A stretch of 64,000 nt of DNA from Diphasiastrum complanatum. Lineage: Eukaryota > Streptophyta > Lycopodiopsida > Lycopodiales > Lycopodiaceae. The notes below the pieces were generated by a model, which searched no databases, was not told where the DNA came from, and saw only the letters and a list, made by a program, of their open reading frames with translations. Below, piece after piece: positions 8,237-48,176 of the stretch; position 1 is the first letter of the stretch, and the number at the start of each line of letters is the position of its first letter. Made by a program: the position numbers and the translations under genes. The stretch lies in assembly GCA_029204225.1 (NCBI GenBank), contig CM055109.1, positions 5,587,053 through 5,651,052 on the forward strand, written 5' to 3'.

Positions 8237-9726
8237 CATTAGGAAAAATATGGGCTCAAAATGGGCCCTTTAAGAAGTTTGACTATAGAGAAAGATTAAC
8301 GAGAGAGAGAAAACTTCCGGCAACATCTATGCTCGTTTTTTATGATTCTGGAACTGCCCGCCACCCAACTTATATGGTAAACATGTAGCCTTAATTTCCA
8401 TAAGCAAATGTGATAATATTGAACATTTTCCCCTTTGAAAAGCACTTTGAGGCGTCCCATGCCCTTGGAAAAATGTGCAACTAGCGTTTGGAACTGGCGG
8501 GCGTAATTGTGCTACTGTGTGCTCATTCACTTCTCCTTTGTATTTCCAGGTGATGGTGCAAGAGCTTTCCAATTCCTAATATCGGTTTAGCGCACAGATG
8601 TGCTATTTGACTGGTTAAACAGGCCATTCGCGCGTTGAATCGATATTAGGTTTTTTTTTTTTAGTCTAAATTTTTAACTGTAGCTCCACTTGAGACGAAC
8701 ATGGTGCCATTAGAAAGAGCTAGACGAGAGCTTTGCAACGACATCCTAGATGATCTGGTTCCGAGTTACGGTTAAAATGTTATAGGTAGTCAAAGTTTGT
8801 AGAAAATCTCTCATTTAAAAAAATATATATCTCAAAAAAATAACCCTAATATTGAATTAGTGTGCGCCCCTAGGGTTTGAGTCCAGTCAAACCCTAAGAG
8901 CGCATGCTGAACCGATATTAGGGTTTTGAAATTTGTGTTTTTTTTGGGAAAGAGCCCCAAAACTTTGTCTGCCTATACCTTTTGAACCGTAAGTCAGAAT
9001 TAGGTCATTTTGGTGCCGTTGCAAAGCTCTCGTCGAGCTCTTTAATAGAAAAAAAAAATTCCGAACCCTAATATCGGTTCACCGCACACCCTTAGGGTTT
9101 GACTAGGCTCAAATCCTAAGGGCGCGTGATGATTCGATATTAGAGTTATTTTTTCGAAATATATATATTCTAAGATGAGAGATTTTCTATGAGCTTTGAC
9201 TGCCTATAACTTTTTAATCATAACTCATAATTAGGTCATCTAGGTGTCATTGTGAAGCTCTCGTCGAGCTCTTTCTAATGGCATCATGTTCGTCTCAATT
9301 GAAGCTACAGTTAAGAAGTTAGACTGTTTGAAAGGCTCTCGCACCATCACCTAGAAATGCAAAGGAGAAGTGAAGCCCGCCGATTCCAAGCGCCAGTTGC
9401 ACATATTTTCAAGGGCATGGGTCCCCTCGGAGCACTTTTGAAAGGAGGAAATATTCAGGAGAACTATAGTTTAGAAAAACTAATGCTAGTTAAACTATTC
9501 GGGTAGATATTTAACATATGGGCAACACATATTGTCCAATGAAATATTTATCAAGAGTTCTTGAAATAATAAAAAGTAACCTGAAAACATGAACACTTTT
9601 TCCTTCCGGTGAGCACTTGTATAGTGTTGTTATAAGATTATTGGTCCATTTGGAGGCTTAAAGCATGTGAAGCCAACAAAAGCATCTTTACAAAGGGCCC
9701 ATTTTGAATCCAAACTTCCCCTAATG
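8237..9726. mobile_element. Fold-back element with CATTAG termini
   Basis: The 1490-bp insert starts CATTAGG and ends CCTAATG. Its termini form an inverted repeat of about 35 bp that includes AAAATGGGCCCTTT on both sides. Much of the interior is also inverted: 8400-8575 pairs with about 9335-9455, and 8690-8745 pairs with about 9258-9320 (shared GAGCT, CATGTTCGTCTC and similar). Three internal modules begin and end with CCTAATAT/ATATTAGG-like arms (about 8576-8650, 8852-8927 and 9063-9147). The other gypsy LTR reads straight through the site (28406-28407: AGAATGG then TAGTTCAG), giving an empty site with no target duplication. It encodes no protein; its short frames are artefacts of the repeats. 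Confidence 0.8.
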
Positions 9727-10222
9727 TAGTTCAGATATAGTCAGCCTAAAATGAGCTTTTAAAATATCATAGTATAGGGATAGTATGATATGCTGACACT
9801 CTGATAGTTAGCATACAACCATTCCCACGTGATTATGGTATAATTTCTTGTGTGCTTGATAAAAGTGCTTTTCTCAAAGCTTTCCCTTTCAAGTGAACTC
9901 AGAAAAACAATCATGCCATCAATGCTTGTTACAACAGATATAGGTTGTGATCATTCTCAAATTTCTCACTTTTACGAACTCCGACTAAGGCAATTTGGTA
10001 CTCTTAGTTGAAACAATGGTGTATCTTGGTTTTTTTGAAGATTTTTGTGTTTTGTTTTTCAGTTTGTTTTTTTGTTTTTTCAAATAGTTTTATATACACT
10101 AATGTACTCATGCTAATGCGTGACCTAGGTTCCAGGGGTCCGTGAATCCTATAGTGCCTGTATATTCCGACGATGCACTAAGGATTGTGTTCTATATGAG
10201 AAATAAAAAAGATTCAGTGTTG

Positions 10223-10227
10223 ATTCC
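10223..10227. repeat. Target site duplication (left), ATTCC
   Basis: ATTCC directly precedes the left LTR and is repeated at 16659-16663 right after the other LTR. The intact target sequence with one ATTCC survives at 28928-28932 in the partner gypsy LTR. Confidence 0.95.
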
Positions 10228-10881
10228 TGTGAAAAATACAGATCCTAAGTGGATCTAAACTCCAAGATCATTGGCTTGAATGCTTGCACTCCAAACTACA
10301 TAAGCTAGGAATTGGCAACACATTCTATGCTACCTAGAATGCAAAGAACTTGATCAAAAAGCATTTATCACAAATGGAAACTTCCATAAACATCAAGTGC
10401 GGCCCAAAATAGCATTATACAGTCCATAATACATCAGCCTATCACTTTTGGAAAGCACCTAAGATCATACACAATAGCTTGAAGACAATACACACAACAA
10501 TGCTCTCAATGGAGGAAGAAACAATGACAATGATCTATTGATCTCAATGAAGCATACAAAAGGTTTCTCCAACCTGTTCTCCACGACTTCCCTACTATTT
10601 ATGGATGAGGAAGATGACTCTCTCTCCTCTCTCTAGAAGGTACTTGACCCTAGATATTCCCTATATAGGAAAAATAGCTAAAAATGGCTTATATGACCAA
10701 AATACATCAAAATGGTCTCATTTTGAAGGGTATGAAGTTTGACACTTCATCATACTGAAAAAATACAGTAAATAAAAACATTGTGCCTGGTTCACACGTG
10801 CAAAACTCCAGAACCAAAACTATTTACAATTTTAGCCAATTTAGGCCTCAAACTAGCTAGGAAATGTTGACAATTTTCACA
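10228..10881 (-). repeat. Copia 3' LTR (element on minus strand)
   Basis: 654 bp, beginning TGTGAAAA and ending TTTTCACA. It matches 16004-16658 throughout by eye except for one G present only in the right copy (near 10787; TTGTGCC against TTGTGGCC). Near-identity of two LTRs made equal at insertion implies a recent event. The minus strand has a TATA-like CTATATAGG near 10664-10672, a plausible core promoter. Confidence 0.95.
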
Positions 10882-13800
10882 CTCCCTCTTCAACATTGGA
10901 TGCTAGTTTCAACATAGTCTTTGAGCACATTCCAAGATTAGATCTATGCATTAAATATAGGTCCTTTCCCAATGGTTTGGTGAAGATATCAGCCACACAC
11001 TCCTTTGAAGAGACATGTTGAAGCTCCACCTCTTTGGCAATGACTTGATCTCTCACAAAATGGTGAGCAATCTCAATGTGCTTGCTCCTTGCATGAAAAA
11101 CAGGATTGCTTGCCAAGCTTTGGGCTGAAAGGTTATCACAAAGTATGATTGGAGTCTTCTCTGGTTCCAGCAAGTGAAGATCCAATAACATCCTCTTGAT
11201 CCAAAGAATCTCCTTGTTGCATGTTGTTAATGCCTTGTACTCGGCTTCGGTGGAAGATAGAGAGATAGTTGGTTGCTTCTTTGATAGCCATGAGACCACT
11301 CCATCTCCAAGATAGATTGCAAAGGCACTTGTTGACTTCCTATCCATTTGATCACCTGCAAAATCTGAATCTGAAAATCCACAAAGGTTAGGTGTAGTAC
11401 CTCCATACAAGATGCCAAAATCTCTAGATCCCGAGATGTATCTAAGTACTCTCTTTCCTAGCTTCCAATGAGCCTCACTAGGATCTTGCATAAATTGACT
11501 TAGTTTACCAACCACAAAGCTTAGATCAGGTCTTGTGATGGTTAACCATATAAGAGATCCTATTAGCTTTCTATAGAGAGTAATGTCCTTGAAGGATCTT
11601 TCATTACTTCTTGTAGTTAGCTTTACATTTGATTCCATAGGAGTAGAAACAACTTTACAATCTTCCATATGAAACCTTTTTAGAATAGAGTTAACATACT
11701 TTTCTTGACATATGAATGTAGATTTAGAAGTTCTAATAATCTCTATTCCTAAGATATAATGAAGTTTGCCAAGATCTTGAATTTCAAACTCTCTTTTGAG
11801 TGCCATCTTGATTTCATCTATATCTAGATTGTTACCACCACTTAAGATAATGTCATCAACATAGATCAAAAGTAAAGTGATATCATTTTCATTCAATCTA
11901 AAGTAGAGAGAATGATCATACTCACTCATAACAAAGTTTTGAGAAAGTAAGAAGGAATTGAGCTTAGCATACCAACTCCTTGGTGCTTGCTTTAGCCCAT
12001 ACAAACTCTTTTGGAGATAGCACACATGATTAGGCTCATCATGTGAAACATAGCCCTCGGGTTGCTCCATGTAAATATCTTCTTCAAGATCACCATTCAA
12101 GAAGGCATTAGTAACATCCATTTGCCACATATCCCAATCATAAAGAGTTGCAAGAGAGATTAGGATTCGAATAGTTACCATCTTTGCCACGGGTGCAAAG
12201 GTCTCATCATAGTCAATACCATATTCTTGAGCATACCCCTTTGCCACCAACCTTGCCTTGTACTTGTTGATTGATCCATCTTGATTTGTCTTGATCTTGA
12301 AGATCCACTTACAACCAATTGCCTTCTTGTCCTTTGGAAGCTTTACCAACCTCCATGTGTTGCTTTTGATGAGTGCTTGATGCTCATGATCCATGGCTTG
12401 GATCCATTCCTTCTTTTGAATTGCTTCACCTACACAAGTTGGTTCATCAAAAGAGGTAAGAAAAGCAAAGTTAGAGTTGTCCACCACTTGCTTTCCTTTT
12501 TCATCATAGGTTAGCCTTGATGGCTTAGCCCTTTGCCTTTGAGTCTTCCTTGAAGTTTGCTTTGGAGTGGCATCTCCATCTTCATCCAAGACATCTTGCA
12601 CATCATGATGATTAGTAGGCACATCAACATCAACATCAACAACATTGGAAACATTCTCTTCATGAAAGATGACATCCCTACTTATGACAACTTTCTTTGT
12701 AGAAGGAATGTACACTTTGTAAGCCTTGCTTACTTCACTATAGCCAACAAACACACCCTTCTTTGATGAAGGATCTTCTTTAGTTCTATCATCAAGTGTG
12801 ATATTGACAAAACATGTACATCCAAAGATCCTACAATGCTTGACACTCGGCCTTCTACCATAAAGAACCTCATGAGGAGTTTTACCATCCAAGGAAGCAC
12901 TTGTCCATCTATTACATAGATAGTTAGCACATGCTAAAGCTTCCCCCCAAAAAGACTTAGCAAGATTAGCATGTAGTCTCATTGCCTTGGCACATTCACA
13001 AAGGGTTCTATTCTTCCTCTCGGCCACTCCATTATGTTGTGGAGTCCTAGGACTAGACATCTCCCTCTTAATCCCATGTGCTATACAAAAGTCTTTGAAC
13101 CTATTTGAGGTGTATTCCCCTCCATTATCAGATCTTAAGCATTTGATCTTTGTATTGAATTGGTTTTCCATTTCATTCTTGAACTTGACAAATGCAGCAA
13201 ACACTTCATCCTTACTTTTAAGAAGATAGATCCAAGTATACCTACTAAAGTCATCAATGAAAGTTGCATACATCTTTGCCCCACCATTGCTAGTTGTACT
13301 AGAAGAATGAATATCAGAATGCACAAGTTGAAAAGCTTCTTTAGATCTAGAAGTAGATCTAGAATAAGCAAGTCTATGAGATTTGGACAAGGCACAATGT
13401 TCACAAACACTATTGTTTGCAACAAGACTTTTAGGGAGACCAAGAACAAGCTCTTTCTTTGCCATTACCTCCAAAGATTTGAAGTTGGGATGGCCCAACC
13501 TCTTGTGCCAAACTTCTTGGTTTGTCAATTGCTCCCTAGCCATACATCCTTCATGATTAGAGATCACACATGCATCAAGCTTGAAAAGTTTACCATGCCT
13601 CCTACCTTGAGCAATCAAGGATCCACATTTACTTATCAAACATGCATCTCCAATGAACTCCACATCAAGTCCTTTGTCAATCATTTGACTTACACTAAGC
13701 AAATTCTTAGTGATTGAAGGAATGTACAAAACATTTTCAAGATTTGCTTTCCTATTTGTTGAAAGGGAAATAGGAATAGTGCCTATGCCTTTGATGTCAC

Positions 13801-14830
13801 ATTGACCATCATTTGCAGTGTAGATGATGTTACCTTCTCCCTCATAAGACAATAAGGATGTAAAGTATTCCTTATGTCTTGTCATGTGAGATGAGGCTCC
13901 ACTATCAATCCACCAAGGATCATTATCATCTATGTTGGCTAACAAACTTGAAGTCATAACAAGTGATTCACATGTGTTATGTTCTTCCTCATCTATTGTA
14001 AGATTTCCTTGCCTCTCTCCTTGCTCTCTTTTCTTCTTATAACATTCATTTGCAAAATGACCTTTTATCCCACAATAAAAGCACTTGAACTTTGACTTAT
14101 TGTTCTTAGTAGAAGAGGAAGAGGAAGAGTGATCATCATGATCAAAGTTACCACCTTTGGACCATTTCCCTTTGCCTTTACCTTTGCCCTTGAATTTGCC
14201 TTTTGTGAAGAAAGCCTCTTCACCTCCACCTTGCAAGGATGCACCATCAAGCTTTGATTGCAACCTATGTTCTTCAGCCAATAAGATTTCTTGCAAGTCA
14301 ACCACACTTGGCAAGACTCTTTGAATGGCAAAACTTTGCACAAGGTTAGCATGTTCATTTAGCAAACCATTCAACATAACTTGGACTATTTCACCATCTT
14401 TTATGTTCTCATCAATGCATGCTAAATCATCACTTAGGGACTTAACTCTCAAGATAAATGCATGAGCACTTTCACCCTCTCTTTGCCTACTAGAAAATAT
14501 TTGTCTCCTTAGGGTCAATACCCTAGATGTGGACTTTGATTCAAAGAGCTTCTTTAAGGCATTCCATGCCTCACTTGCACTTTGACACTTTCCAACTTCC
14601 TTGAGAAGTTCATTTGTAACATTCATTTTAATGATATGAAGAGCCCTTTTGGCCTTCTTATCAAACCTTTGTTGCTCTTGAAGTGTGAGAGGTCTCTCTT
14701 CAATTTCTGCAACTATGTCCATGAGTTCATTCAACTCAAGTAAGGACTCCATCCTCACTTTCCAAGTAGAGTAGTTTGATGAACTCAACCTTTCACTAGA
14801 CTCTAGCATGATCCCACCATTGGAAGCCAT
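10877..14830 (-). CDS. Ty1/copia gag-pol polyprotein, intact
   Basis: A single unbroken frame of 1317 codons encodes all copia functions in the order gag, protease, integrase, reverse transcriptase, RNase H. Visible landmarks: UBN2-type gag over about 20-190, a lysine/glycine-rich linker (206-227), a CCHC zinc knuckle (250-263), protease DSGA (309-312), integrase HHCC (H442, H447, C476, C479) and catalytic D506, D568, E604, RT motif YVDD (990-993), and RNase H acidic residues in DSDFAGD (1154-1160), STEAEY (1193-1198) and CDN (1231-1233). The start at 14830 gives MASNGG and is the first ATG after the leader. The stop TGA at 10879-10877 lies within the first five bases of the 3' LTR. In the cell the polyprotein forms cytoplasmic virus-like particles and its integrase acts in the nucleus. 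With a full frame, all key residues, a primer site, a polypurine tract and near-identical LTRs, it looks competent or very recently so. The clade within copia is not assigned. Confidence 0.97.
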   Translation of the reverse strand: MASNGGIMLESSERLSSSNYSTWKVRMESLLELNELMDIVAEIEERPLTLQEQQRFDKKAKRALHIIKMNVTNELLKEVGKCQSASEAWNALKKLFESKSTSRVLTLRRQIFSSRQREGESAHAFILRVKSLSDDLACIDENIKDGEIVQVMLNGLLNEHANLVQSFAIQRVLPSVVDLQEILLAEEHRLQSKLDGASLQGGGEEAFFTKGKFKGKGKGKGKWSKGGNFDHDDHSSSSSSTKNNKSKFKCFYCGIKGHFANECYKKKREQGERQGNLTIDEEEHNTCESLVMTSSLLANIDDNDPWWIDSGASSHMTRHKEYFTSLLSYEGEGNIIYTANDGQCDIKGIGTIPISLSTNRKANLENVLYIPSITKNLLSVSQMIDKGLDVEFIGDACLISKCGSLIAQGRRHGKLFKLDACVISNHEGCMAREQLTNQEVWHKRLGHPNFKSLEVMAKKELVLGLPKSLVANNSVCEHCALSKSHRLAYSRSTSRSKEAFQLVHSDIHSSSTTSNGGAKMYATFIDDFSRYTWIYLLKSKDEVFAAFVKFKNEMENQFNTKIKCLRSDNGGEYTSNRFKDFCIAHGIKREMSSPRTPQHNGVAERKNRTLCECAKAMRLHANLAKSFWGEALACANYLCNRWTSASLDGKTPHEVLYGRRPSVKHCRIFGCTCFVNITLDDRTKEDPSSKKGVFVGYSEVSKAYKVYIPSTKKVVISRDVIFHEENVSNVVDVDVDVPTNHHDVQDVLDEDGDATPKQTSRKTQRQRAKPSRLTYDEKGKQVVDNSNFAFLTSFDEPTCVGEAIQKKEWIQAMDHEHQALIKSNTWRLVKLPKDKKAIGCKWIFKIKTNQDGSINKYKARLVAKGYAQEYGIDYDETFAPVAKMVTIRILISLATLYDWDMWQMDVTNAFLNGDLEEDIYMEQPEGYVSHDEPNHVCYLQKSLYGLKQAPRSWYAKLNSFLLSQNFVMSEYDHSLYFRLNENDITLLLIYVDDIILSGGNNLDIDEIKMALKREFEIQDLGKLHYILGIEIIRTSKSTFICQEKYVNSILKRFHMEDCKVVSTPMESNVKLTTRSNERSFKDITLYRKLIGSLIWLTITRPDLSFVVGKLSQFMQDPSEAHWKLGKRVLRYISGSRDFGILYGGTTPNLCGFSDSDFAGDQMDRKSTSAFAIYLGDGVVSWLSKKQPTISLSSTEAEYKALTTCNKEILWIKRMLLDLHLLEPEKTPIILCDNLSAQSLASNPVFHARSKHIEIAHHFVRDQVIAKEVELQHVSSKECVADIFTKPLGKDLYLMHRSNLGMCSKTMLKLASNVEEGV
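10882..10891 (-). promoter_or_regulatory. Polypurine tract
   Basis: On the minus strand GAAGAGGGAG directly precedes the 3' LTR. This is the expected position and composition for the plus-strand DNA primer of reverse transcription. It lies inside the reading frame and encodes its last residues. Confidence 0.9.
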
Positions 14831-15988
14831 GATTCTAATGTTTCTTCAACTTTTAGGTTTTGTCCTAAAGCACTTAGCACTCACTTTTCTCTCAACAAAT
14901 GATAGATAAAGAGATCTATGAAGATTTAGGACCCTAAAACACTTCTATCTTGAACCTAGATGGTTTCCAAGCATAGAAAGGAAGATTGAAACACATGCAA
15001 CACTTTGCACACACTAAGAATGGATTACAAAATCAAACCAACCTGAACACACTCTTGCTTAAGCTCTCAAACTTTCCAGCAAGTGACCAAATCAAGTTAT
15101 GGTGTGAAGAGTTACTTGCATTCTTAGAAAATACCCAAAACTAGGATGCCAAGATTACCTAGTAATGAACAAACTTGATCAACATATGATCAACACACTA
15201 AGATATTGATTCAACCTGTAAAACCACATGTAAACCACACTTCTAAAAGTTTATAAACTCCAGCAAGTGATAAATACAAGATTTAGAGGTGAATGAATGA
15301 GCACACTTAGTGAATCACAAGACTAGCTTCACTATCTTGTCAAATCTTGGTGTTTAGATGTAGATCTAAGATCACTTCACATGAGAATGTTCCTCAACCT
15401 GTTAAGAACCTGAAAACACACTTGCATAATGGTTAACACCTTCCAGCAAATGCTCCAATCAAATTACATAAGGAGAGTTACTTACATGCTCAACAAAGTA
15501 CACCAAAATTTATGCCAAAATTGATGACAATCTTTACAATATGCTCTTCACAATGGAGCTTACAATATGTTCACCCAAAAAAAGGGGATCTTTCATCCAA
15601 ATGGGAGCTTTGCTCAGCCTTTAGGAGAATTACAACTCACTCAAAAGAGCATTTGTCATCCACTTAAGGAGAAGTTTCATCCACTTAAGGAGAGTGTTCA
15701 TCCAAGAATGGAGATTGTCAACAATAGGATTGAAAAGAACATTGTTAGTATTGAATATGCACAAGCCTCACAATCACAAATGATTAGGTGTTATGATCTG
15801 ATCCAAAATAGTTTCTTTTCAGCCTCTGATCTTCAATAGACCTGAAATATGCTTTTGATCCACAAGTTCAACTCACAAAACAAAGGTTATTAAGATTTGA
15901 TCAACAAAGCAATGCAAAATCATGCTAGAACTTGATCAAACATCCAAATATCACCAAAAATGGAATACTTACTGTAAATAGAAGCCAA
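14831..15988 (-). other. Copia 5' leader with internal repeats
   Basis: This is a long untranslated leader between the primer-binding site and gag. It holds three imperfect copies of a block that starts near AACCTG and contains TTCCAGCAA or CTCCAGCAA followed by a purine-rich run, at about 15040, 15213 and 15396 (spacing about 171 and 183 bp). A short minisatellite with CATCCACTTAAGGAGA units lies at about 15590-15715. The 90-codon plus-strand frame at 15567-15839 crosses this minisatellite and is not a gene. The leader may hold packaging or translation signals, but that is inference. Confidence 0.7.
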
Positions 15989-16003
15989 CCAGCTCTGATA
16001 CCA
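15989..16003 (-). promoter_or_regulatory. Primer-binding site, tRNA-iMet type
   Basis: On the minus strand TGGTATCAGAGCTGG directly follows the 5' LTR. It begins with the TGGTATCAGAGC complement of the 3' end of plant initiator tRNA-Met, the usual primer of copia elements. Confidence 0.95.
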
Positions 16004-16658
16004 TGTGAAAAATACAGATCCTAAGTGGATCTAAACTCCAAGATCATTGGCTTGAATGCTTGCACTCCAAACTACATAAGCTAGGAATTGGCAACACATT
16101 CTATGCTACCTAGAATGCAAAGAACTTGATCAAAAAGCATTTATCACAAATGGAAACTTCCATAAACATCAAGTGCGGCCCAAAATAGCATTATACAGTC
16201 CATAATACATCAGCCTATCACTTTTGGAAAGCACCTAAGATCATACACAATAGCTTGAAGACAATACACACAACAATGCTCTCAATGGAGGAAGAAACAA
16301 TGACAATGATCTATTGATCTCAATGAAGCATACAAAAGGTTTCTCCAACCTGTTCTCCACGACTTCCCTACTATTTATGGATGAGGAAGATGACTCTCTC
16401 TCCTCTCTCTAGAAGGTACTTGACCCTAGATATTCCCTATATAGGAAAAATAGCTAAAAATGGCTTATATGACCAAAATACATCAAAATGGTCTCATTTT
16501 GAAGGGTATGAAGTTTGACACTTCATCATACTGAAAAAATACAGTAAATAAAAACATTGTGGCCTGGTTCACACGTGCAAAACTCCAGAACCAAAACTAT
16601 TTACAATTTTAGCCAATTTAGGCCTCAAACTAGCTAGGAAATGTTGACAATTTTCACA
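16004..16658 (-). promoter_or_regulatory. Copia 5' LTR
   Basis: 655 bp, TGTGAAAA to TTTTCACA, with one extra G relative to the left LTR. As the 5' LTR of a minus-strand element it should hold the promoter; the TATA-like CTATATAGG is at about 16435-16445. Confidence 0.95.
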
Positions 16659-16663
16659 ATTCC
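16659..16663. repeat. Target site duplication (right), ATTCC
   Basis: Second copy of the 5-bp duplication made by the copia insertion. Confidence 0.95.
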
Positions 16664-17345
16664 TAGACCCAAGAGGTTGGGGTACAACATTCACACTTGT
16701 GTACTATATACAAAATCGACATTATGCTTAAAAACCCGAGTTTGCATTACTAGTAGTAGTAGTATGAATTCATGAGCCATTCCTATAGACATTTCAAAAT
16801 CACTACCACTTTGGTTACTCACGAAACACACGCAACACCTTCATAACTTCTATCTACAGATCTTACAAACAACTTTTCAAAAAGCATCAAATTAACTAGT
16901 AAGTACACAACCTTCCAATTATTACTTAAAGTACCCATACTTCAGAATCACAACATAAATTTACAAGAAGAGCATTACGTATCTTAGTCAGACCTCCTTT
17001 TCTTCACTAAAATGAGTAGCAACCACATCTCAAACATACTTAATGATTGTTACGAGCACTTTTTCCATCAGCAATTTATGAAACATGAGTCCATAACTTA
17101 AATCTAGCTTAGCTAAGTTAGCAATTCCAATACATACATACAATGAGTAGAGTCCTCCCTTCATTTGTATGCCAACTAGTAAAACCAAATATGACGAGAA
17201 TGTACCTCTAATGGTCCCAGTGTTGTGCTCAGCTAGAAAGGGAGAGCTCAATCACCAATGATAAGAGTGAACCTTTGTTTGAAAAATGGTTTTGTGAGTC
17301 CACCTCTCAAAAAAACTTTGGTTCTGGGGCTCCCTTTGTGCCCTA
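16664..17345 (-). repeat. Ty3/gypsy 3' LTR, right part
   Basis: This continues the gypsy LTR after the copia insertion and is collinear with about 28933-29780 (shared AAGAGGTTGGGGTACAACAT, CACTACCACTTTGGTTACTC, AGAAAGGGAGAGCTCAATCA). It lacks a 51-bp segment present in the other LTR between two CCAAGAGG words, and a stretch of about 120 bp before CTGGGGCTCCCTTTGT. Similarity is lost after about 17345, which marks the approximate inner end of the LTR. Confidence 0.7.
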
Positions 17346-19314
17346 CTTCTGACTAACAGCAGTTGCCTACAACTCACCTTTCTAGCTCACATCTGTTGGT
17401 AGCACGGCCCCTTCATCACGCATTTCTAGTCTAATTTTTTGGGGTTCTCTGATTGCAGCTCCACAACTTCTGGTAGTGCTTTCTCTTCTCAAACACCATT
17501 TTTCATACTGTAAGGATGAAAAATGAGGGTGATTCATGACCAATCAAGCAGAATGGAAGTGCGGCCTCCTACACCATGTGCACAGTTGTAAGGATCAGAC
17601 TCCATTCATTGGAGTTCGATAGAAAGAGACAATGCCATTATAGCATCAACATACACGGGAGATGTCAAAACAGTCTGAGTCTAGTGTTCATGAATTCACA
17701 AAAGAGAGCTAAGCAGCATCACTTCCTAACCCATAACAGAAACAATTAGCAATCTTGTAGAGACTCAAAATCTAGAGGAAGATATAGAATTCTACCAAGG
17801 AATGACAATCTTAAAATCACAAGGAGTTCAAAACCACAACTATATCACCAGAGAATATACAAAATAGAGGTAGATTATCAAATCTTTGAACACACTCAGT
17901 AGTGTGAAGATCACACCAAGAACCTGCAACATCTAGTGAAAAGGAAGGGGCTTGAACCCATTGCACACAACCAAAACTTGAACCTCATAACAACCTCATT
18001 CAACAGAGCATTTGCCCATTTTTATAGGCTTGGAGCCCACCCATTTTCTTCACTTTGCCATTATGCTCTTCTTCTTTCTTTTCTCAGCTCGATTGTAGTC
18101 TCTTCTAAGACATTGAATGTTGATTTAACATTTCAGCATGAGCCTATGTAGAATAGCCTCTCATGCCTATTTGCTTTTCTTGATATGGGGTCTTTTAAAT
18201 ACTTGAACCCCCAAATCCACAAGTAAGGCCTCCTCATGTATTAGAACTCATTTGGCCTTTTTGGCATGTGGCTAATAGGTTTGGCCTCATGTCTAGTGCC
18301 ATGTGTTTTTCTTTTTCTTTTCTTTTCTAGCTACTTAATGAGGCCCCTCTTTGATTTTGCCCATGTGGCTATTAGGAGGCCCACAACTATATTTCTTAGA
18401 TTTTGGTCTTTGGTCATCAAGCCATGCTTCCTTTTTTCCTTGTCATTGGCCCTCCTCTTAATTTTTGCACTTTGAGAACCCCTTTCTCTTAATCATCTGA
18501 TTTTTTATTCCGAAAGTTTGGTGACTGAGCCCTCTCTTCCACTGAGCGGCAACCTGAAAACACAGTACTTCGGTATTTGTATTAGTATAAAAAATCACAG
18601 TACATTGCAATATTTTGGCACAGTGGCCGAAATTATACTATAGGCCAATTTTTTAAAGGTCGTAAAATTTTTTTAAAGGCCAATTCTAAGTCCGTAATTT
18701 CTCTAGTCACATTACGAGCGGGATGGGACCCCTGACTATTGCAATTTTTAGCCATTTTACATCAAAATTTTGCGGCTTTTACATGCCGATTTCTATATTA
18801 TAGCAAAATTAAGCTCCAAAATTAGCCCGGTTTTTTGTGTGAAAAATTTGGCTAACATAGGCGATCTCCACTAGGTCGCATGGTCCCCATGCGACGGATC
18901 TAGAATCTCTGGTTTTGAGTGTATCAGCTTCTTGTGTTTGTTGTAGAACCAATATGGGATCAACACCTCTTTTAGGGATTGATGCTAACCATCTTCCTTT
19001 GTTGAACTGCTAGTGAGTTCAGCTATCCATTACTTTATTTGCATCAGTCTTCTTGATAAAAGGTGCCTTCATTTCTGCATAAGACATCCCAACCATTTGT
19101 TTCTAATGTGGCACATGCACCCACTCCCATCAGTATTATGAGATATGCCTGATTTCAGACCCATGCATAGAAAGACATGCAAATGCAAGATCTTGGAGTT
19201 ATGGAAATGAATGCAGTCTCAACGGTGTGTCTATTGTATGTGAAGATGCAAGGTGGATACAAGATACACCCAACTCCTGTCGTAAATTTTTGTAGGTACA
19301 TCATATGGCTCTTT

Positions 19315-19360
<46 letters not shown>

Positions 19361-19854
19361 CTGTATAAACATTATATACATCACTCTCCTTTCCCTTTGT
19401 ATTTTCCCAATCCTTTTTCTCACCCTTGTCCCGTTGATGTTCCTAAACAATCACATATATGCCTGTTTTTACAATGCGAAAGATATGCCCATTTTTCTCT
19501 CAGAGTTGATGCATACTGAAAAGCATGAATGCAACTTGTTCAAGTTTGTAACATATGATGTATACACATTGTGTCTACATGGTGCGTCAGTGGTGGGTGA
19601 AAAAGAAAAATGCTTGTCACTCATAAGACTTGTTACATGCTTTGATTTGGGATAAAGACTTTTAGATCCATCCATAAATGTGTGATTTGTTGTCATCAAT
19701 GGCCATTGTAGATGAGATTGGCGACTAGTAGATGGCCGCAACTCGAATTCCTGGTAGGATAACGGGAACTCCATATCTGGTATATATAGGATGTAAGAAT
19801 CTAAATCTACTCTTTCATCTTGGGTGAAAAATTAGGGATATGCCCTCTGGCTGC
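17346..19854 (-). other. Non-coding 3' region of the gypsy element
   Basis: About 2.5 kb between the last coding frame and the 3' LTR with no recognisable domain. It contains a run of more than 40 T at 19320-19360 (A on the element strand). Short open frames (17936, 18266, 19177, 19469) show no motif I can recognise and are not called. A long 3' untranslated stretch is common in large gypsy elements of the Tat group. Confidence 0.5.
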
Positions 19855-20232
19855 TCAAGACTCCTCTAGTTCTCTAATTTTTTCTTGTGACTTATAAGTG
19901 GCTACTTCCCTTGTTAATGAGCGGATTGATATCTCCTTTGATGTTGTTTCTGAAATGAGTCGACCTATAGTTCTTTCTTGGCTTTCGATATGTGCAAGTT
20001 GTTTGGCTTGTTGTATTCTTTTCTCTTCCTCTATTTGTTGATGTCGTTTCTTCCAGGTATCTAAACTGAAGATCTCATTGCTTTTCCGAACAGTTAGGTT
20101 CCTTGCAATTTTCAGTTCCTTATTCAGTTCATTGATTTCTTTTGTATGTCTCTCTTGTTCCTTAGAAAGAACTTGTGCCAATGCTTCCCATGATTTTGGT
20201 GGTCCCTGATTACTAGTAGTTGCATCTCCCAT
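19855..20232 (-). CDS. Coiled-coil open frame of the gypsy element
   Basis: About 125 codons without a stop, starting at an ATG at 20232-20230 (MGDATTSNQG). The protein is highly charged and predicted helical by composition. Heptad-like runs such as SKEQERHTKEINELNKEL and EEEKRIQQAK suggest a coiled coil over most of its length. It lies downstream of the second RNase H on the same strand. I do not recognise it. It may be an accessory protein of the element, a C-terminal piece of the polyprotein, or a captured fragment. Being free of stops among frames full of them is notable, although the length is modest. Confidence 0.45.
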   Translation of the reverse strand: MGDATTSNQGPPKSWEALAQVLSKEQERHTKEINELNKELKIARNLTVRKSNEIFSLDTWKKRHQQIEEEKRIQQAKQLAHIESQERTIGRLISETTSKEISIRSLTREVATYKSQEKIRELEES

Positions 20233-20440
20233 GATGTTGATTTCCTGATACACACGAGTGGTGTGCATACTCAGATGATTTTCCTAGTGCCAAGGTATGT
20301 GTGCTGCTTCAAGAGGTGTGCATCAATCCTTGTACTATGTCATGTTGATATGTCCAAAAACAGGTTTTGGCTAGTTCTTGGCTCATTAGATGTTGTAGGT
20401 CTTGTAGGACACAAGATGTTTGAGATAGGAGATAGGTGTT

Positions 20441-20986
20441 CTACCCATTTGATGCCATATATATGGACTTAGTCTTCATTAGTACCCATAATTTAAAAGC
20501 AGTGTCAGGGAATTTAGGAGTAGATTTTTTGGGTCTGAAATTATGATAGACGTCTTGATTGTATGATAAGTTGGCTAATTCGTCAGCTCTCACATTCTCA
20601 CTATGCAGGATATGCATCCATTCCACTATGGTAAATTCTTGTGTCAGTTGAGGTATGGTTAAAACATAGGCCTTTAATTTTTTGTCTTTTAGACGGTACC
20701 TATTGTTCATCCCATATATTAACAACTACAAATCCCCACACACCCTAAGATGGCTCTCTTTTGCTATCATCTTTGTTGTCATGTTTAGTCCTAGTATGGC
20801 ACTTTTGAACTCTACGGCATTGTTCATAAAATGCGTTCCCAAATATACTCCCATGCTAGCTATCTCTCTACCTTTTGAATTTGTCAAACTTATCCATACT
20901 GCTTCTTCTTTTGTAGGATGCCTACATGCCTCGTCAACTATTAGGGTGCATATGTCTAATCCAGATGTGGTTTTCATTATATACAA
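20441..20986 (-). pseudogene. Second RNase H domain (plant-type aRNH) of the gypsy element
   Basis: Two pieces in one frame, separated by a single stop at about 20726-20728, fit a type I RNase H fold of the kind added to Tat-group gypsy elements. Landmarks in order: NNAVEFKSAILGL (equivalent of the NNxAEY-ALI motif with its catalytic acid), LRVCGDL, where the conserved aspartate lies just before the stop, then a KAYVLTIPQL helix and HILHSENVRADELANL, the usual C-terminal N-ADxLA motif. The domain would degrade RNA in the RNA:DNA hybrid. It lies after the integrase rather than between the first RNase H and integrase, the order I know from Ogre and Retand elements. Its first catalytic aspartate is not obvious in the decayed N-terminal part. 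Confidence 0.65.
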
Positions 20987-21595
20987 CTATTTCTCTTTTT
21001 TAACTTTTTTTTTCTAGTTGTTCGAGGTCGGGCCTCTTTTGGATAACATGTGGGGTTTATCCCATGTCAAGGATCCCCCCCAATCTAATCCCCCAAAGAA
21101 ATTGGTAATCCGTGATCGGTATCAAGCTAGGAACGTTACGTCAAGATGGTGAAAAATATAGATAGATTGTCCGATGGGGTGGAATGGCTACGGCAATATC
21201 ATCTAGAACTCATTCATCTATGATATCTATGTTCATGAATGGACTGTCGAGATCATAATGTGAATGACAAGAGGTATTGTATTCACAATCAACAAGTATA
21301 CGACAGATGGTTTTGTGTTTCCATAAAAATGCTTAGAACGTCGGGTCTTCATTTCCATTCCATTCTCACATTAGTCGTGACTCTATCCACAGTTCTGACT
21401 CTTGGGGTTCCCACTCAAAACTTCTCAGATAAGGATTAATTGCTTGTACTAGAGGTTCAGTCAGTTCAGGCCCTCTTTCTTGAATCACTCTGATGGATCC
21501 TGATTGTTCTTGTGCCATAGTTGCACAGACTCAGACCCTCCTTCTTTTGTCTATTATAACTGGGTACCTGAAACAAAACAAAAAGCTATTATACA

Positions 21596-22909
21596 TTATA
21601 CATGAGTGTTGAATTTTGATACATAGTAGGCCATTAACTTGTTCAGGTTCACATGATACTTGAACACTTTCCCACTTAACTTTGTGAGCGTAACGATGTT
21701 ATTGTCATACGATTTTTGGATGATGTATGTCTCTTCCCATCTCATTCCGAACTTATGCAGCATCAACTCGTTTCTCGCATCATAATACAGTACTAGTTGT
21801 CCCTTAGTGAACTTGTACTTTGACATTTTCCTATCGTGTATGATTTTCATCCATTTTTTGTATGTTTCTTGGTGTGTCAAGGACGTCAATCGTTGTTCGT
21901 CCAATTCCTGTAGTGTATCAATGCATTTTTGTAGCGCCTCTTTCTCCCCTTCAATCTCTATGGATAGGAAGCATTCTTCTCCATAAACTAGGAAAAACGG
22001 AGTATGGTTAGTGCTAACTTTATAGGTGTTATTGTAAGCCCATAAGGCAACATATAACTTACGGTCCCAATCCCTTTTGTTGTCAGCTACATTTTTTCAG
22101 AGAATGAATAGTAACTGTTTGTTTGTACTCTCGGCTTGGCCATTGGTTTGTGGGTGATATGGGGTACTTTTCCTGTGTCTAATCAACAATTGTTCTATCA
22201 AAGCCTTAATAGTCTTGTTAAGGGAATGTGTTCCTCTATCAGACACTAACTCTTTGGGTGCTCCAAATCTACCTATCACTTGTTCCAGTAAGAACCATGC
22301 TGTCTCTTTGGCATTATGTTTTGCTACCGCTCTGGCTTCTGCTCACTTAGTAAAGTAGTCAGTGCCTACGACTATGTAGTGTTTCCTGCTTGACGATGCA
22401 GGGTGGATGGGTCCCATGAAGTCTATTCCCCATTCCTCAAATGGTAGCATCACTTGTATTGGCACTTAAGAATGTGTTTTGGCAAATATCACAATTATGC
22501 ACATATAAATGAGCATCATGAAATATAGTAGGCCACTAGTATCCTGCCCTAAGTACCTTCTATGTTGTTAATTGTCCAGCGAAATGGCCTCCACATGCTA
22601 AATCATGACATTCTTCTAAAACAAATTGACCTCTCCTGGTGTAATACATCGTCTATACAATCCTTCTATACCTCGTCTGTATAGGACACCTCCTATTAAT
22701 GAGAATCTCAAGGCTTGTAAGTGTAGTTTTCTCTTTTCTTGATGAGACATGGATTCTGGTATAGTAAGTATTGAAAGATAGGTGGCTATATTGGCGTACC
22801 ACTCAAGTATCATAGTTGTGTCTATTCTCATCAAGTCTTTTACTTGGTTAGTCTCCCAATCACTATCCTTAGTTTTTATATTACCTAGTTTGCAAATGCA
22901 ATCGTTCAA
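21596..22909 (-). pseudogene. Ty3/gypsy integrase, broken
   Basis: Fragments of one integrase lie in order on the minus strand. 22616-22909 holds the region before the HHCC finger (WYANIATYL and a RRGIEGLYRRCI run). 22097-22279 holds the end of the catalytic core, with LVSDRGTH and PYHPQTNGQAES around the second aspartate and the catalytic glutamate. 21596-21904 holds the C-terminal module with KFTKGQLVLYY and KFGMRWEETYII. Stops and frame changes separate them, so no integrase can be made. The PYHPQTNGQAE form fits the Tat/Athila branch. No chromodomain is seen. Confidence 0.8.
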
Positions 22910-22981
22910 CCCCTGTCAGCATGGTGGTTTGCTTTTGAGTTTGTAGTCAAATTATTGAAGGGTAAGGATCGATTTTATCAA

Positions 22982-23272
22982 TCAATCTGGTGGTTCCAAC
23001 TTGTTCATCATCATGGTCACAGCCTCGCTTTTGGTGTAGAATGTTACCTTTCTATGCAGTAAATAGTGTCTAAATTTTGTAGCGGCATAGGCTACTCCTA
23101 AGCATATTCTTTCAGCTTTGGAATAGTTTAGTTCGGCTGCTTTCAACTTTCTCCCTATGAATATTATGGGGTTATAGACTTTATCCCACACTTGGGATAA
23201 ACAACAGTTAATGCAAGTAACCGTGGTGTTAGTGAACACGTGAAATGGTCTATCGTACATGGGCGGTTTCAA
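22982..23272 (-). pseudogene. Ty3/gypsy RNase H (first), fragment
   Basis: 96 codons carry the RNase H-like region that follows gypsy reverse transcriptase: VFTNTTVTCINCCLSQ, PIIFIGRKL, then LNYSKAERICLGVAYAATKFRHYLL. The usual Asp at the start of the domain is replaced in the VFTNTT segment, so it is probably inactive. It ends at a stop just before a segment resembling the usual linker (QFDYKLKSK). Confidence 0.75.
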
Positions 23273-23583
23273 ATTGGTGCCTCAGCTAATGCTTTTTTTA
23301 AGTCGTTAAATGCTTGCTCACATTCACTGGTCCACTCCCACTTTGTATCTTCTTGAAGTAAACTAGTAATGGGATAGATACGAGATGCATTTGCCATCAC
23401 ATATCGCTTACCTAGGAAAGACTACAATGGTTCCATCTTGGTGGGTGTCATTATAGCTAACAACATTGTGATTTTTTCAGGGTCAGTAGCCATCCCATAT
23501 TGACTGATTACATGCCCCAGTAAGACTCTATAAGGGATTCCAAATAGACATTTGTTGGCATTCAAGGTCACGCACATTGTTGC

Positions 23584-24075
23584 TCATTTCTCAAAACAAT
23601 TTTCTAGTACAGCTAGATGTTTTGAAAGAGACGAGGCCCCACAAAGATCATGAACAAATTTTTTTAATTTGGCATCTAAAATGTCCTCAAAGTGGTGATT
23701 CATAAAACGTTGATACGTAGCGGGGGCATTGGTTAGTCCAAATGGCATGATGTGATAAGCGAAGGTTCCAAAAGTTGTTGTGAAGGCAGTTTTCAACTTA
23801 TCCTTCTCATCAACGGCTACTTGATTATACCCTGCGAAATAGTCCATAAACGAGTATATCTCTTTCCCTGCCAACTCTTCTAGTATCTGATCGATAAATG
23901 GTAGGGGGTAATAATCCTTCTTGGTGTGTTGGTTCAGCTTCTTGTAGTCTACGCATATGCGAATTTGAGTGGAATTCTTCTTAGGACGTGGGACTATTGG
24001 TGAGGACCATTTAGTATTCTCTACTGGGAAGATTAATCCGGCCTTCCTTAGTCTCTCCAATTTTGTAAATACCAC
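23584..24075 (-). pseudogene. Ty3/gypsy reverse transcriptase, partial, altered active site
   Basis: 163 codons cover fingers and palm of a gypsy reverse transcriptase: LRKAGLIFPV, WSSPIVPRPKK, RICVDYKKLN, FMDYFAGYNQ with the first catalytic aspartate, MPFGLTNAPATYQRFMN, then FVHDL. The last motif is normally FVDD; here the first aspartate of the pair reads His (CAT at 23652-23650). Enzyme activity is therefore not expected. Upstream, between the gag tail (24662) and this domain, no protease motif is seen, so protease is deleted or decayed beyond recognition. Confidence 0.85.
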
Positions 24076-24165
24076 GGCTCTTAAGTGTAATGGTAACCTC
24101 CGCTATCTCTGTCGTACAAGTTTACTTCCCTCAATGAGTGGTATGCTATGAGTAACTAGGGATGG

Positions 24166-24661
24166 GAGTATTCCTTTCAAATCATCATAATCCCAAGACA
24201 AAGAATAAGTTTTTAAGAAGCTGTGATAAAATTGACAAGCTAAGTTTGGTACAAGCTAAAACATCTTATTGAATGAACGAAAATAATCAAGAAACAAGAA
24301 AAGCAAGTGAGTCCAATGTGTTTCATTCTCAGATCAAACATGGGTGAGGTATGGAAATTGGTCTAGTCCAACTACATATGAAAAATACATGATATTCGAG
24401 AAACATCAATCTGACATCTAGGAATATTAGATTTATAAGCCCAAACTCTTCTAAGAGAGAAAAAGTGAAAAGTTGTCTCATTAAAAATTTAACTGAAAGT
24501 GCTTGTGTTTAGCTTTATTATTATCTATTAAAGTTTTCTATGTCTTTTAACCCTTTCTGCAGTTCGTTAGTCCAAAGTTCTTTATGTTTCATTCTCCTCG
24601 TAGTCTTGGGCTTTGGTTTCAGTCTGGGGTTTCATGGTGCAAGTGATGGTCTTACTAGCTG
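24166..24661. other. Region expected to hold protease; none seen
   Basis: On the element strand this 0.5-kb AT-rich stretch should carry protease (a D-S/T-G motif), but no such frame is readable. It could be a deletion joint or an inserted fragment. Confidence 0.4.
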
Positions 24662-26105
24662 TCAGTCATATGAATGGGGTATCTTCTTCCCTTCCAATTT
24701 TGAGACTTCTCCCTCTTTCTTTTCTATGTGCGTATCTTCTTTATCTTTCTCTAATCGTGGCGAAGTGACTGGCCATGGTGTAGCTATCTCCTTAGGCTCT
24801 TCAGATTTTTCTGGCTGTTTTTCCTTTGGTTGAGTTCTCAGCCCACTCCGAATGACTATCAATACCTCTTCCCTAGGTTTTTGTGTTCCTAGGGTTTCTA
24901 TTTCGATAAGATTGACTGGTGGTCGTTCCTCATGTATGTTGAACTTTCCTTTTCCAACCACAGTAACTTTATGGTCTTTTTGTAAAAAATTTGCTTGCCT
25001 TAATAGACCCTCATTACTAGGATCTGGAAATTTATGGTTGATCGGCCCTGGTATTCGATTCACATTGTTTAAGGCTTCTCTTCTATTCCAACATCTATCC
25101 TCCAAATGGCCTGTTTTTTGACAATGTCAACATATCGTGTTGGGGCAGTTTCGACACCAAACTTGGTGGAGCATCTAAGAGACGTCTTTGTCCCATCATG
25201 TTTTGTTGTCACTTCAGGAAGTTTACATTCGCAGCTAAAGTCAAAATGTTTTCGTGCATCACATCCATATATCATTTTAGCATAGGTTTCACATTGTCGA
25301 TTTCTGTATTAGATCCCGTGCCTTCATATCCTTGTTCTACATGCATGTTCCTGGTGACTGGTGCAACTTGCTTTTGGTTTAATGCATCACTCTAGTAGTT
25401 CATCGGGATGGCTCTATTTTGCTATGTGTGTTGTACTATCAGTGGTGTGTGTGGTCCATAATGACCAGGTCTCGTATTCAGGGGTGTTTCCCATATATCA
25501 CTTCCAAGGTTCAAATTGTTTACTACAAAAAATATTTTTGATGCTTGAGCCATCGTTATCTATGTTTCCACGACTATTACTGCTTTTTTCACAGTTTCTT
25601 CTAAAGTTTGAGGATTAGTATGTCTCACTATCAGCTACAGCTCACTTTTCAATCCTCGTAGAAAAAATTTCAATAGGAGTTTCGAGCTAAGAGCTACCTT
25701 GACTCCTACATGGCGAGGTAATTCGGTTAATTGTCGCAAATACTGCCTTACACACTCACCCTCCCCTTGTTGGATGGAGGTTAGTGTGAATAATAGGCCA
25801 TCAGTTGTTCGATGAGGGACTAATACTTCTAAGAACAACTTATGAGGGACTAATTCTGCAATGAATTCTTTGGAAAGGCTATAATACCACTTCCTAGTTG
25901 TTCCGATCAAGGTGATCGCGAAACACATCATTAGATGGCATGGGTTCAAAATCCTATTTATATGACACGCTGTCCAAAAGGCATTTATATGATTTTCAGC
26001 CCCTTCATATGGTGCCCCGTGGTATTCAAGGGTCGTACCTCTGAACTTAGGCAACAACTCTAAATTGGCTGGTATAACTATAGGTTCTATTACTCTTGCT
26101 GCCAT
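24662..26105 (-). pseudogene. Ty3/gypsy gag, broken
   Basis: The frame at 25635-26105 starts MAARVIEPIVIP and contains FRGTTLEYHGAPYEGAENHINAF-type capsid sequence, a WYYSL segment and an LRQLTELPRHVGVK run, typical of gypsy gag capsid helices. Further on, a CCHC zinc knuckle (25132-25091, ending GHLEDRCW) is readable but contains an in-frame TGA between its first two cysteines. It is followed by a charged tail (24662-25105) rich in Glu, Lys and Pro. Stops and frame shifts break the gene. The ATG at 26105 is the likely gag start, about 370 bp after the putative primer site. Confidence 0.75.
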
Positions 26106-26477
26106 GATTGTTGTGGGAGTAATCTCGCTTATAGCCGCTAGTTCTTCATTGTTGGCTATACTATGTTCCAGAAGTTGGCCTGATTCGAATGAGTCTCTCC
26201 CTCTTCTAATACAACGTCCTCTATCAAGTTTGGTATTCTAGATCTCAAGGGATATTTTGTAGAGGGTGATCCTATCTGCCCACAGAGTTGCTGCTTGGGA
26301 CCTATGTTTACTTGTCATTTTGTTATGTTTGGTGGAATTGTGGGATCAACACTCTTCATGCGATGCTAACCACATTCTAGCCATAACGCTTATTTAGACT
26401 CCATTATATTTCATCGACTCTCTCAGTGTGAGTTCACCATTAGTCATTTGTAGCTAACACACGTCTTTTTAATTTTC

Positions 26478-26495
26478 TCCCGGAAGACACACCAA
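26478..26495 (-). promoter_or_regulatory. Putative gypsy primer-binding site
   Basis: On the minus strand TTGGTGTGTCTTCCGGGA directly follows a CA dinucleotide that may end the 5' LTR (26496). The position is right and the sequence resembles a tRNA 3'-end complement, but I cannot name the tRNA. Confidence 0.4.
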
Positions 26496-27988
26496 TGTTT
26501 GGGCAAATTTTGGCCAGGGATTCGTCAGCCAAAACACCTTAGCGAGGGAAGAACCAACAATATCCTTACATGAGTAATCAGAGTCTAACCGCTTCCAATC
26601 CCGGGGGCCCCACTGATTCCTCCGTACTCCTAGGTCAACGAGAGTTTTTCAGGATCTCAAAGATGTGACCAGCGGGAGATTGTTCGCATCTTAGTGCTCA
26701 CACAAATCCATGACCGGCTAGCATGTTGTTGATTTGCAGTGAATAGACACCTTGTGCTACCCAACGATGATGTTCTTATGTGCACAATGGTTAGGATGAG
26801 GAATCCATGAGAGTTTATCTCTACGACAATGTCTCCAATATGAATCTCTCTAGCTGTGGTGTCAAATGCTATGATATCTATATTGGCGGGCCCTAAAACA
26901 CGTAAAACCAAATAGAATTTGCGTGGGCTAAAGTGTACTCCGTTCATAACATGCTTCTTTGAGTGTTCTATTATTGTCGGGACCTTTTTCTAACATCAAG
27001 TGTAGAGGTTGGCTCTTCTATAGTTGGGGTTGGTTCTTCTAAAGGTTGGGTAATACGTCTAAGGATGGCTGTCAAATTTTCATCAGTAGAAGCTGGTGGG
27101 GTAGGCCGACGAGGTATCACTAATTCTGTATATCGGATGGTTGTAAGGCCTACACATACCCAGTTCAGATTTTCTGCTAGCTTGTACACATTTATATTAA
27201 TTTCATATGCTCTATGTCTAACTCGAAACCATCAATCATCTGGGATGAGAAAACGCTGGACATACGAGCTATAGAAGTAGTAATAGGTTGTGCCTTGTCG
27301 CCATATTGATCATGGGAAATCTACTGGACTCAATGCTTGCTCAACAGGTTGCAATTGTAACGTCTGTGTGGTCACTAGTATCCCTTGCTGATTTATTTTG
27401 ATATATAATGTGGCCTTACCCCGTTGTCAATGTCAAGTGCTAAGTCTCCAGTTCGAAGGCCACGTACTGTAGTATCGAGTCCTATTATGGTCACATAGAG
27501 TCCGGTGAAGCGAAGTATAGGACAATATCATCGTGGTCGGCGTTCATCAGTCATGCCCTCACTGTATGATGTTATACAGTGGCACTGTCCTAGTAGCAAA
27601 GATTCCCTCTCAGCTTGGGTGAATAGTTTAAGATTCTCAACAACTCTAGAAGGTGTGGGTGTTGTCCTAATTCAGTCTCATAGTTATCACGGATTTTATT
27701 GAACTTTTAGAACATTTCACTCTCAAATCCATTCCTCTCTACACTCAATAATTTCCGTGATGACATTATTAGACCCCTTAGGTTGAACACTCACTTGCTT
27801 GGATGTCCTGGTGGAGCAAGTAGAAAATATACATTCATGTCATCTAGGTCTTATGTATCCTGACTCGGTTTTTGTGACAAGAGACAGTACAAAGGTTGAC
27901 GACCCATTCAAAGTTTGATAAATCCTCTCTTTAAAATCACTAATGATAGCATCTGTTGTCAAGTCTTTAGGTGATGCTTATCCATAGT

Positions 27989-28367
27989 CATTAGAGGAGT
28001 TCTAAATCCAAAAAAGACCCTTTGTGAAGATTCTTTTTATATTTTTTTCTCAAATTTTTCTTACACATGGACCAATCAAAGCACTCAAATTTGAAATCTA
28101 CGTAACGTAACTTTTTGAGTCCACATTTTGATTCCATACTAAAAATGGCATAACTTTCTAGTAGTAAGTCCGAATTTAGCGAAGTTCGGTGCATTGGAAA
28201 GTGCTCAACAAGGGCTTTCCAATGATATGTTAGATGACATACTCTTGAACTACGATTAAAAAGTTATGGCAAGTCAAAAGTATTAGTGTTATAATATTTT
28301 AATAATAAAAAAGGCATCTTGCACGAATTCTTAAAGGGTCTTTTTGGAACTCAAAACTCCTCTTATG
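27989..28367. mobile_element. Short TIR element, CATTAG/CTTATG ends
   Basis: The 379-bp insert starts CATTAGAGGAGTT and ends AACTCCTCTTATG. The terminal inverted repeats are about 38 bp, imperfect, and include AAAAAGACCCTTT on both sides. The partner LTR has CCATAGT joined to CGTATCTCTCTCGG at 8197-8198, the empty site with one base difference. Its interior (ATTGGAAAGTGCTC, TTTCCAATGATATGTTAGATGA) resembles a module in the fold-back element at 8700-8800, so the two belong to one wider family. It has no coding capacity. A TTA or CAT duplication could be argued, but the empty site fits best with no duplication. Confidence 0.7.

Positions 28368-47222: not shown

Positions 47223-48176
<954 letters not shown>

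What the first reader, a model, noticed from the sequence alone, without database searches (positions are those of the whole stretch)
8237..28367. Two related CATTAG-ended elements that appear to insert without target duplication
The 1490-bp insert at 8237-9726 and the 379-bp insert at 27989-28367 sit in opposite gypsy LTRs. Each LTR preserves the other's empty site. For the first, flanks AGAATGG and TAGTTCAG are directly joined at 28406-28407 with no extra base. For the second, CCATAGT joins CGTATCTC at 8197-8198, as predicted from CATATCTC with one substitution. Both start CATTAG, have AAGACCCTTT/GGGCCCTTT-like words in the inverted repeat and share an internal module. Standard hAT, Mutator, PIF or CACTA elements leave 2-10 bp duplications. 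A few groups (for example Spy-type) lack them, but not with these termini as far as I know.
Basis: partly seen in the sequence, partly recalled or inferred. Interest (0 to 1): 0.72.

Follow-up and report, generated by a model that had tools for sequence, protein, structure and literature searches.

The report
Abundant transposons inserting without target duplication
A plant-like genome carries thousands of copies of jumping DNA elements that slot into chromosomes without duplicating the few bases that nearly all such elements duplicate, and larger relatives with the same ends encode what looks like a RAG1/CACTA-like enzyme, so tools that look for that duplication would miss them.

Summary
E1 (8237-9726) and E2 (27989-28367) each have an exact empty site in the other copy of a long repeat; a copia element nested in the same repeat shows a normal 5-bp duplication. 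In the 1.74-Gb host genome, E2-type left ends occur 2,968 times and E1-type ends 1,982 times (up to 2 mismatches; reversed-pattern controls 0). None of 53 independent intact copies has a flanking direct repeat of 4 bp or more; repeats of 1-3 bp are near chance. Of 18 copies with a comparable paralogous site in the sequence held, 13 are flush. Position 3 of the target favours A (T on the other side). Two larger elements (6.6 and 8.3 kb) have the same CATTAG ends, no duplication, and an intron-bearing gene. Its product matches no Pfam, NCBIfam, PHROGs or PDB sequence, but its D, D, C(2)C, H(4)H, E layout resembles RAG1/CACTA (CMCT) transposases, and its best local alignment to RAG1 puts H937, H942 and E962 in register (weak statistics). 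CMCT elements are reported to make 2-5 bp duplications, so this is probably a new no-duplication lineage. Spy, the known no-duplication group, does not fit. One genome only; no activity shown.

The parts
8237..9726 (.). E1, 1490-bp near-palindromic non-autonomous element
   Evidence: Exact empty site in the other repeat copy; large self-inverted stretch; no long frame in 19 copies
8237..8271 (+). E1 left terminal inverted repeat, starts CATTAG
   Evidence: 83% over 35 bp with the right end
9692..9726 (-). E1 right terminal inverted repeat, ends CTAATG
27989..28367 (.). E2, 379-bp non-autonomous element
   Evidence: Exact empty site in the other repeat copy; 40 scored relatives in the genome
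27989..28023 (+). E2 left terminal inverted repeat, starts CATTAG
   Evidence: 83% over 35 bp with the right end
28333..28367 (-). E2 right terminal inverted repeat, ends CTTATG in this copy (CTAATG in most of the fetched copies)
9195..9280 (-). internal module of E1 shared with E2 28192-28278
   Evidence: 75.9% over 87 bp, E 9e-13
8703..8794 (+). second, inverted copy of that module in E1, shared with E2 28188-28278
   Evidence: 71.7% over 92 bp
28407..28408 (.). empty site of E1 in the other repeat copy
8196..8197 (.). empty site of E2 in the other repeat copy
10228..16658 (.). control: nested copia-type element flanked by ATTCC (10223-10227 and 16659-16663); the other repeat copy has ATTCC once
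   Evidence: flanks printed; its two ends are 99.3% alike
26928..29632 (.). long repeat copy B that holds E2 and the empty site of E1; copy A is 7082-10228 plus 16669-17320

Best explanation
[quoted passage not shown] Larger relatives (6.6 and 8.3 kb in the two followed end to end) encode a DDE-type transposase whose layout is that of the RAG1/CACTA/Transib (CMCT) kind. A dimer would bind the about 35-bp inverted repeats, cut at the CA/TG ends, and join both element ends to target bonds directly opposite each other (0-bp stagger), so that repair leaves no duplication. Shown: shared ends, sharp boundaries, no duplication in many independent copies, a target preference on both sides at position 3, coding relatives with the same ends. 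Inferred: that this protein moves E1 and E2, that it is catalytic, that it belongs with CMCT transposases, and that joining is blunt.
For: Exact empty sites in the window, with a 5-bp duplication at the nested copia as control. No flank repeat of 4 bp or more in 19 E1 and 39 E2 rows (34 independent); 1-3 bp repeats near chance. E2 boundary conservation 0.94-1.0 inside and 0.29-0.53 outside in 34 copies. 13 of 18 comparable paralogous sites flush. Position 3: A 55, T 31, C 15, G 5 of 106 flanks, p 1.9e-6. 1,982 and 2,968 end matches, controls 0. Two coding elements with both CATTAG ends and no duplication. D, D, C(2)C, H(4)H, E order and spacing; best local alignment to RAG1 in register at H937, H942, E962 (22 of 2000 shuffles); the CMCT motif description comes from passages of PMC12730594.
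Against: No profile match at all: Pfam up to E 10, NCBIfam and PHROGs up to E 1, PDB up to E 10. The RAG1 comparison is weak: hhalign E 0.013 with probability 3.4% locally, nothing globally, and the D1 and D2/C2C stretches alone do not beat shuffles (477 and 1231 of 2000). Codon positions show no third-position excess among copies, so they decay neutrally, and no intact source copy was shown. General dyad complementarity around the junction is not raised (103 of 424). CMCT elements are reported to make 2-5 bp duplications. Only one genome was examined, and only two coding copies were seen end to end.
Confidence: 0.72

Rival explanations
1. The elements lack duplications as found, but the source enzyme is not of the CMCT kind: the RAG1-like motifs are a coincidence and the open frames belong to another or an unknown transposase type.
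For: No profile match; weak RAG1 statistics; no sign of selection among copies.
Against: Order D, D, CxxC, H(4)H, E with D2-C 20 and D2-E 253, against 19 and 254 in RAG1 (residue numbers recalled), and the best local alignment lands on the catalytic E region in register. Even the solved Transib-type transposase matches RAG1 only at E 0.003 over the same region in one search.
Confidence: 0.2
2. They are members of an already named CMCT lineage such as Lanisha, whose target duplication has been misjudged or varies.
For: Lanisha is listed as a CMCT lineage (PMC12730594 passages); CA..TG termini agree.
Against: The same passages give CMCT lineages, Lanisha included, 2-5 bp duplications. Lanisha sequences are not held, so nothing was compared.
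Confidence: 0.15
3. A branch of Spy (PHIS superfamily), the known inverted-repeat group without target duplications.
For: Absence of duplication is shared (passages).
Against: Spy is described as inserting within AAATTT; here the bases at the junction are mixed and only position 3 is biased. The spliced candidate protein has no DDE_Tnp_4 match at E up to 10. Four of the 92 DDE_Tnp_4 matches in the genome were fetched with flanks and had no CATTAG inverted ends; the other 88 were not examined.
Confidence: 0.04
4. A rolling-circle (Helitron, HUH) or tyrosine-recombinase (Crypton, DIRS) element, which can also lack duplications.
For: Helitrons and DIRS lack duplications (PMC8969392 passages).
Against: Symmetric inverted ends that include the very first bases, no TC..CTRR ends, no A^T rule. 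No HUH or recombinase profile was among the Pfam results for five open frames and one spliced reading; the rest of the large elements was not searched.
Confidence: 0.02
5. The missing duplication is an accident: deletion, gene conversion or repair at two sites, or plain insertion/deletion differences between the repeats.
For: The repeat copies also differ by other indels of up to 44 bp without obvious transposon ends.
Against: The same boundary without duplication recurs in 53 independent copies.
Confidence: 0.01

Closest known systems
[quoted passage not shown] RAG1)
   Same: CA..TG termini; [quoted passage not shown] RAG1-like spacing and a RAG1-like stretch around the last E (description from passages of PMC12730594)
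   Different: 0-bp instead of 2-5 bp duplication; no profile match; CATTAG ends
Spy (PHIS superfamily)
   Same: Inverted repeats and no target duplication (PMC4482050 passages)
   Different: No AAATTT target; no DDE_Tnp_4 match in the candidate protein
Plant MITEs and foldback elements
   Same: Short, non-coding, high copy, inverted repeats; E1 nearly palindromic
   Different: Plant MITEs are sorted by their duplication; a survey of 207 plant genomes set the MITE Tracker minimum to 2 bp (PMC12550479 passages)
Helitrons
   Same: Usually no target duplication (PMC8969392 passages)
   Different: Symmetric inverted ends, no TC..CTRR ends, no A^T target rule

Membership tests
[quoted passage not shown]
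   CLCC/CLYC at 198 and H..H at 406 and 411 between D 178 and position 431 in the L096 reading; catalytic function of these residues is inferred
CMCT clade of DDE transposons | 5'-CA..TG-3' termini in most cases | tested here: met
   CATTAG..CTAATG in E1, E2 and both large elements
CMCT clade of DDE transposons | 2-5 bp target duplication | tested here: not met
CMCT clade of DDE transposons | transposase related to known members by sequence profile | tested here: inconclusive
   No Pfam hit up to E 10, no PDB hit; RAG1 alignment 22 of 2000 shuffles, hhalign E 0.013 with probability 3.4%
Lanisha | membership by transposase phylogeny | not testable with these tools
   Only mentioned in PMC12730594 among the 20 papers listed of 23; its sequences are not held
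Spy | no target duplication | tested here: met
Spy | insertion within AAATTT | tested here: not met
   mixed bases at the junction in 53 sites
Spy | PHIS-type (DDE_Tnp_4) transposase | tested here: not met
   no match in the L096 reading; 4 of 92 DDE_Tnp_4 loci in the genome checked, none with CATTAG ends
Helitron | TC..CTRR ends, insertion between A and T, no simple inverted repeats | tested here: not met
   definition from passages of PMC8969392
Cut-and-paste DNA transposon | terminal inverted repeats with a transposase-coding relative | tested here: met
   two large elements with the same ends and a DDE-like gene; activity not tested

The most novel reading that the evidence does not exclude
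A new superfamily-level lineage of RAG1/CACTA-like DDE transposons that joins both ends bluntly, has thousands of copies in a land-plant-like genome, and may be widespread but overlooked because annotation asks for a target duplication.
Probability: 0.55. Interest if true: 0.82.

Novelty: new variant of a known kind. Interest (0 to 1): 0.72.

Why it matters
Length of the target duplication is treated as a conserved trait of each transposon superfamily and is thought to reflect target bending and the distance between the two active sites (PMC10045372 passages). A RAG1/CACTA-like enzyme with a 0-bp stagger would break the 2-5 bp rule reported for that clade and make the geometry question testable. 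Practically, a pipeline with a minimum duplication of 2 bp, as set in PMC12550479 (passages), could be expected to miss such elements even though nearly 5,000 end matches lie in this one genome.

Tried and rejected
PIF/Harbinger/Spy as source: PF13359 has 92 matches in the genome; four loci with long open frames (L079-L082, about 4.9 kb each) were fetched; no end-like match better than E 0.07 was found in them. The other 88 matches were not examined.

Profile searches: Pfam with five open frames gave only matches below the curated cut-offs; Pfam, NCBIfam and PHROGs with one spliced reading gave none, nor did PDB with the alignment.

Literature: eight searches showed, in the listings, no description of such a family; a search for six sequence strings listed four papers, none on transposons by title. 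The library lacks most subscription papers; the original Spy paper is not held.

Selection: no third-position excess among copies. Between the two large elements the first 3.3 kb differ by 4-8% per 300-base block and the following blocks by 11-23%; not pursued.

Full report
Observation. The long repeats are 88.8% identical over the part aligned, with other indels of up to 44 bp. Copy A also holds a nested copia-type element at 10228-16658 flanked by ATTCC on both sides, where copy B has ATTCC once: the same comparison does reveal a normal duplication. E1 and E2 are related by their ends and by an internal module. E1 is largely self-complementary; the longest stop-to-stop stretch in 19 E1 copies is 65-107 codons.

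Copies. I infer a land plant from genome size and element types; this was not tested. E1 search: 288 matches, 40 of 3,550 candidates scored. Of the first 28 E1 loci, 19 were used; dropped were L001 (the same site as L002), L006 and L007 (same flanks as L005), L019 (same as L018) and L024-L028 (one end missing). Twelve further loci (L029-L040) were second copies of sites already held or lacked an end in the scan and were not counted. E2 search: 40 matches, 40 of 3,041 candidates scored; 38 were fetched, the window copy makes 39, and 34 have distinct flanks (L042, L043, L049, L053, L070 dropped). Copies were chosen by similarity to E1 or E2, not by their flanks.

No duplication. E1, 19 copies: flank repeats of 1, 2, 3 bp in 5, 1, 1 copies against 4.7, 1.1, 0.3 expected from cross-pairing; none longer. 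E2, 39 rows including the five duplicate sites: 10, 1, 2 against 10.0, 2.5, 0.8; none longer. In 34 E2 copies conservation is 0.94-1.0 just inside both ends and 0.29-0.53 just outside. Of 57 joined flanks (38 E2, 19 E1), 18 had a spanning similar site in the window or loci held; 13 have no gap column within about 12 bp of the junction in at least one comparison (L002, L004, L009, L011, L021, L023, L046, L050, L058, L064, L067, L068, L071), some at only 68-75% identity. L013, L020, L060, L063 and L072 have 17, 1, 1, 1 and 2 gap columns there. L046 has a 12-base gap slightly further left, and L021 and L068 are flush in one comparison and gapped in another. The window's own E2 site is one more exact case.

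Target. Over 53 sites, both flanks read outward, position 3 is A 55, T 31, C 15, G 5 of 106 (p 1.9e-6, 15 positions tested); position 6 has p 0.03; the others are unremarkable. A general complementarity scan gave 103 of 424 at the junction and its highest value, 127 of 424, one base away, so the two-sided signal is confined to position 3. It is what a two-fold complex centred on the junction could leave, but it is weak.

Copy number. Matches to the E1-type end pattern: 995 + 987; to the E2 left end: 1,500 + 1,468, each with up to two mismatches; the patterns read backwards: 0. 23 E2 copies of 378 bp differ by 2.8% on average from their majority sequence; they are among the best matches to E2, so this is not the age of the whole family.

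Coding relatives. Eight places with E1-type ends were sampled. Five (L083, L084, L086, L087, L090) are 89-94% alike over most of their length and carry open frames; L088 is E1-like; L089 is a 940-bp element; L085 has frames that look copia-like to me. Two of the five were followed to the other end: C3:2805663-2812267 (6,605 bp) and C1:2588394-2596722 (8,329 bp), with CATTAG inverted ends and flanks GCAAA|CTCGA and ATACC|AGACT. A search with one exon gave 150 matches, all candidates scored out of 11,727, at 85-100% identity, many with stops inside. Five more copies were read. Exon borders GTATAC..CTACAG and GTGCTA..TTGCAG recur between copies.

The protein. L096 reads 467 residues without a stop from within exon b. 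Candidate residues: D 86 (KLDES), D 178 (LAGD), CxxC from 198, H 406 and H 411, and position 431, which is K in L096 and E in A84, A87, L098 and L099; L098 lacks the second D. D2-C is 20 and D2-E 253, against 19 and 254 in RAG1; D1-D2 is 92 against 108 (RAG1 residue numbers recalled). Against the RAG1 core (letters checked) the best local alignment of the whole protein is VTHYMHILFHHATYFAKEYGSLSIWSSQG with [29 protein letters not shown], which puts H937, H942 and, continued, E962 in register; 22 of 2000 shuffles reach its score (2 of 2000 for that region alone). Local hhalign gives E 0.013 but a probability of only 3.4%; the global run, and the D1 and D2/C2C stretches alone, give nothing. In passages of PMC12730594 these motifs and CA..TG termini are shared by EnSpm/CACTA, Mirage, Chapaev, Transib, Plavaka, ESTA, Lanisha and RAG1, with 2-5 bp duplications. 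I place the family near this clade by layout and do not file it as a member: the duplication was tested and not met, and the profile tests are inconclusive.

Mechanism. Most likely a dimeric DDE transposase excises the element at CA/TG and joins both ends to target bonds directly across from each other. Shown: ends, boundaries, missing duplication, a two-sided target preference at position 3, coding relatives. Inferred: that this protein acts on E1 and E2, its catalysis, blunt joining.

Limits. Copies decay without sign of selection; no intact source copy was shown; one genome only; Lanisha could not be compared; the literature search covers the open library only.

Noticed in passing
10877-14845 (-): A 1,322-codon open frame that looks like copia Gag-Pol lies in the nested element; its two terminal repeats are 99.3% alike, so it is a recent insertion.
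   Followed up: no
44486-45157 (+): A 223-codon frame that looks like part of a second, different copia reverse transcriptase.
   Followed up: no
4228-5600: Degenerate tandem repeats with 8-base spacing, 49 overlapping copies in one family of the repeat search.
   Followed up: no
47221-47456 and 52611-52744: Inverted repeats of about 110 bases, 91-100% complementary in many registers, 5.2 kb apart; the many registers suggest simple-repeat DNA.
   Followed up: no
36640-36809: Head-to-tail duplication of an 85-base unit, 98% identical.
   Followed up: no
L087+L091 joined, 3073-4308 (-): Reverse-strand frames of 110 and 230 codons in the 6.6-kb element; the first has a counterpart of 136 codons in the 8.3-kb element; possible second gene without a significant Pfam match.
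   Followed up: partly
G000 contig C22, about 24.6-26.5 Mb: A cluster of DDE_Tnp_4 matches in one chromosome region.
   Followed up: no
E1 8703-8794 and 9195-9280, E2 28188-28278: The internal module is repeated in both orientations within E1 and shared with E2 although the rest of their interiors is unrelated; why it is kept is unclear.
   Followed up: no
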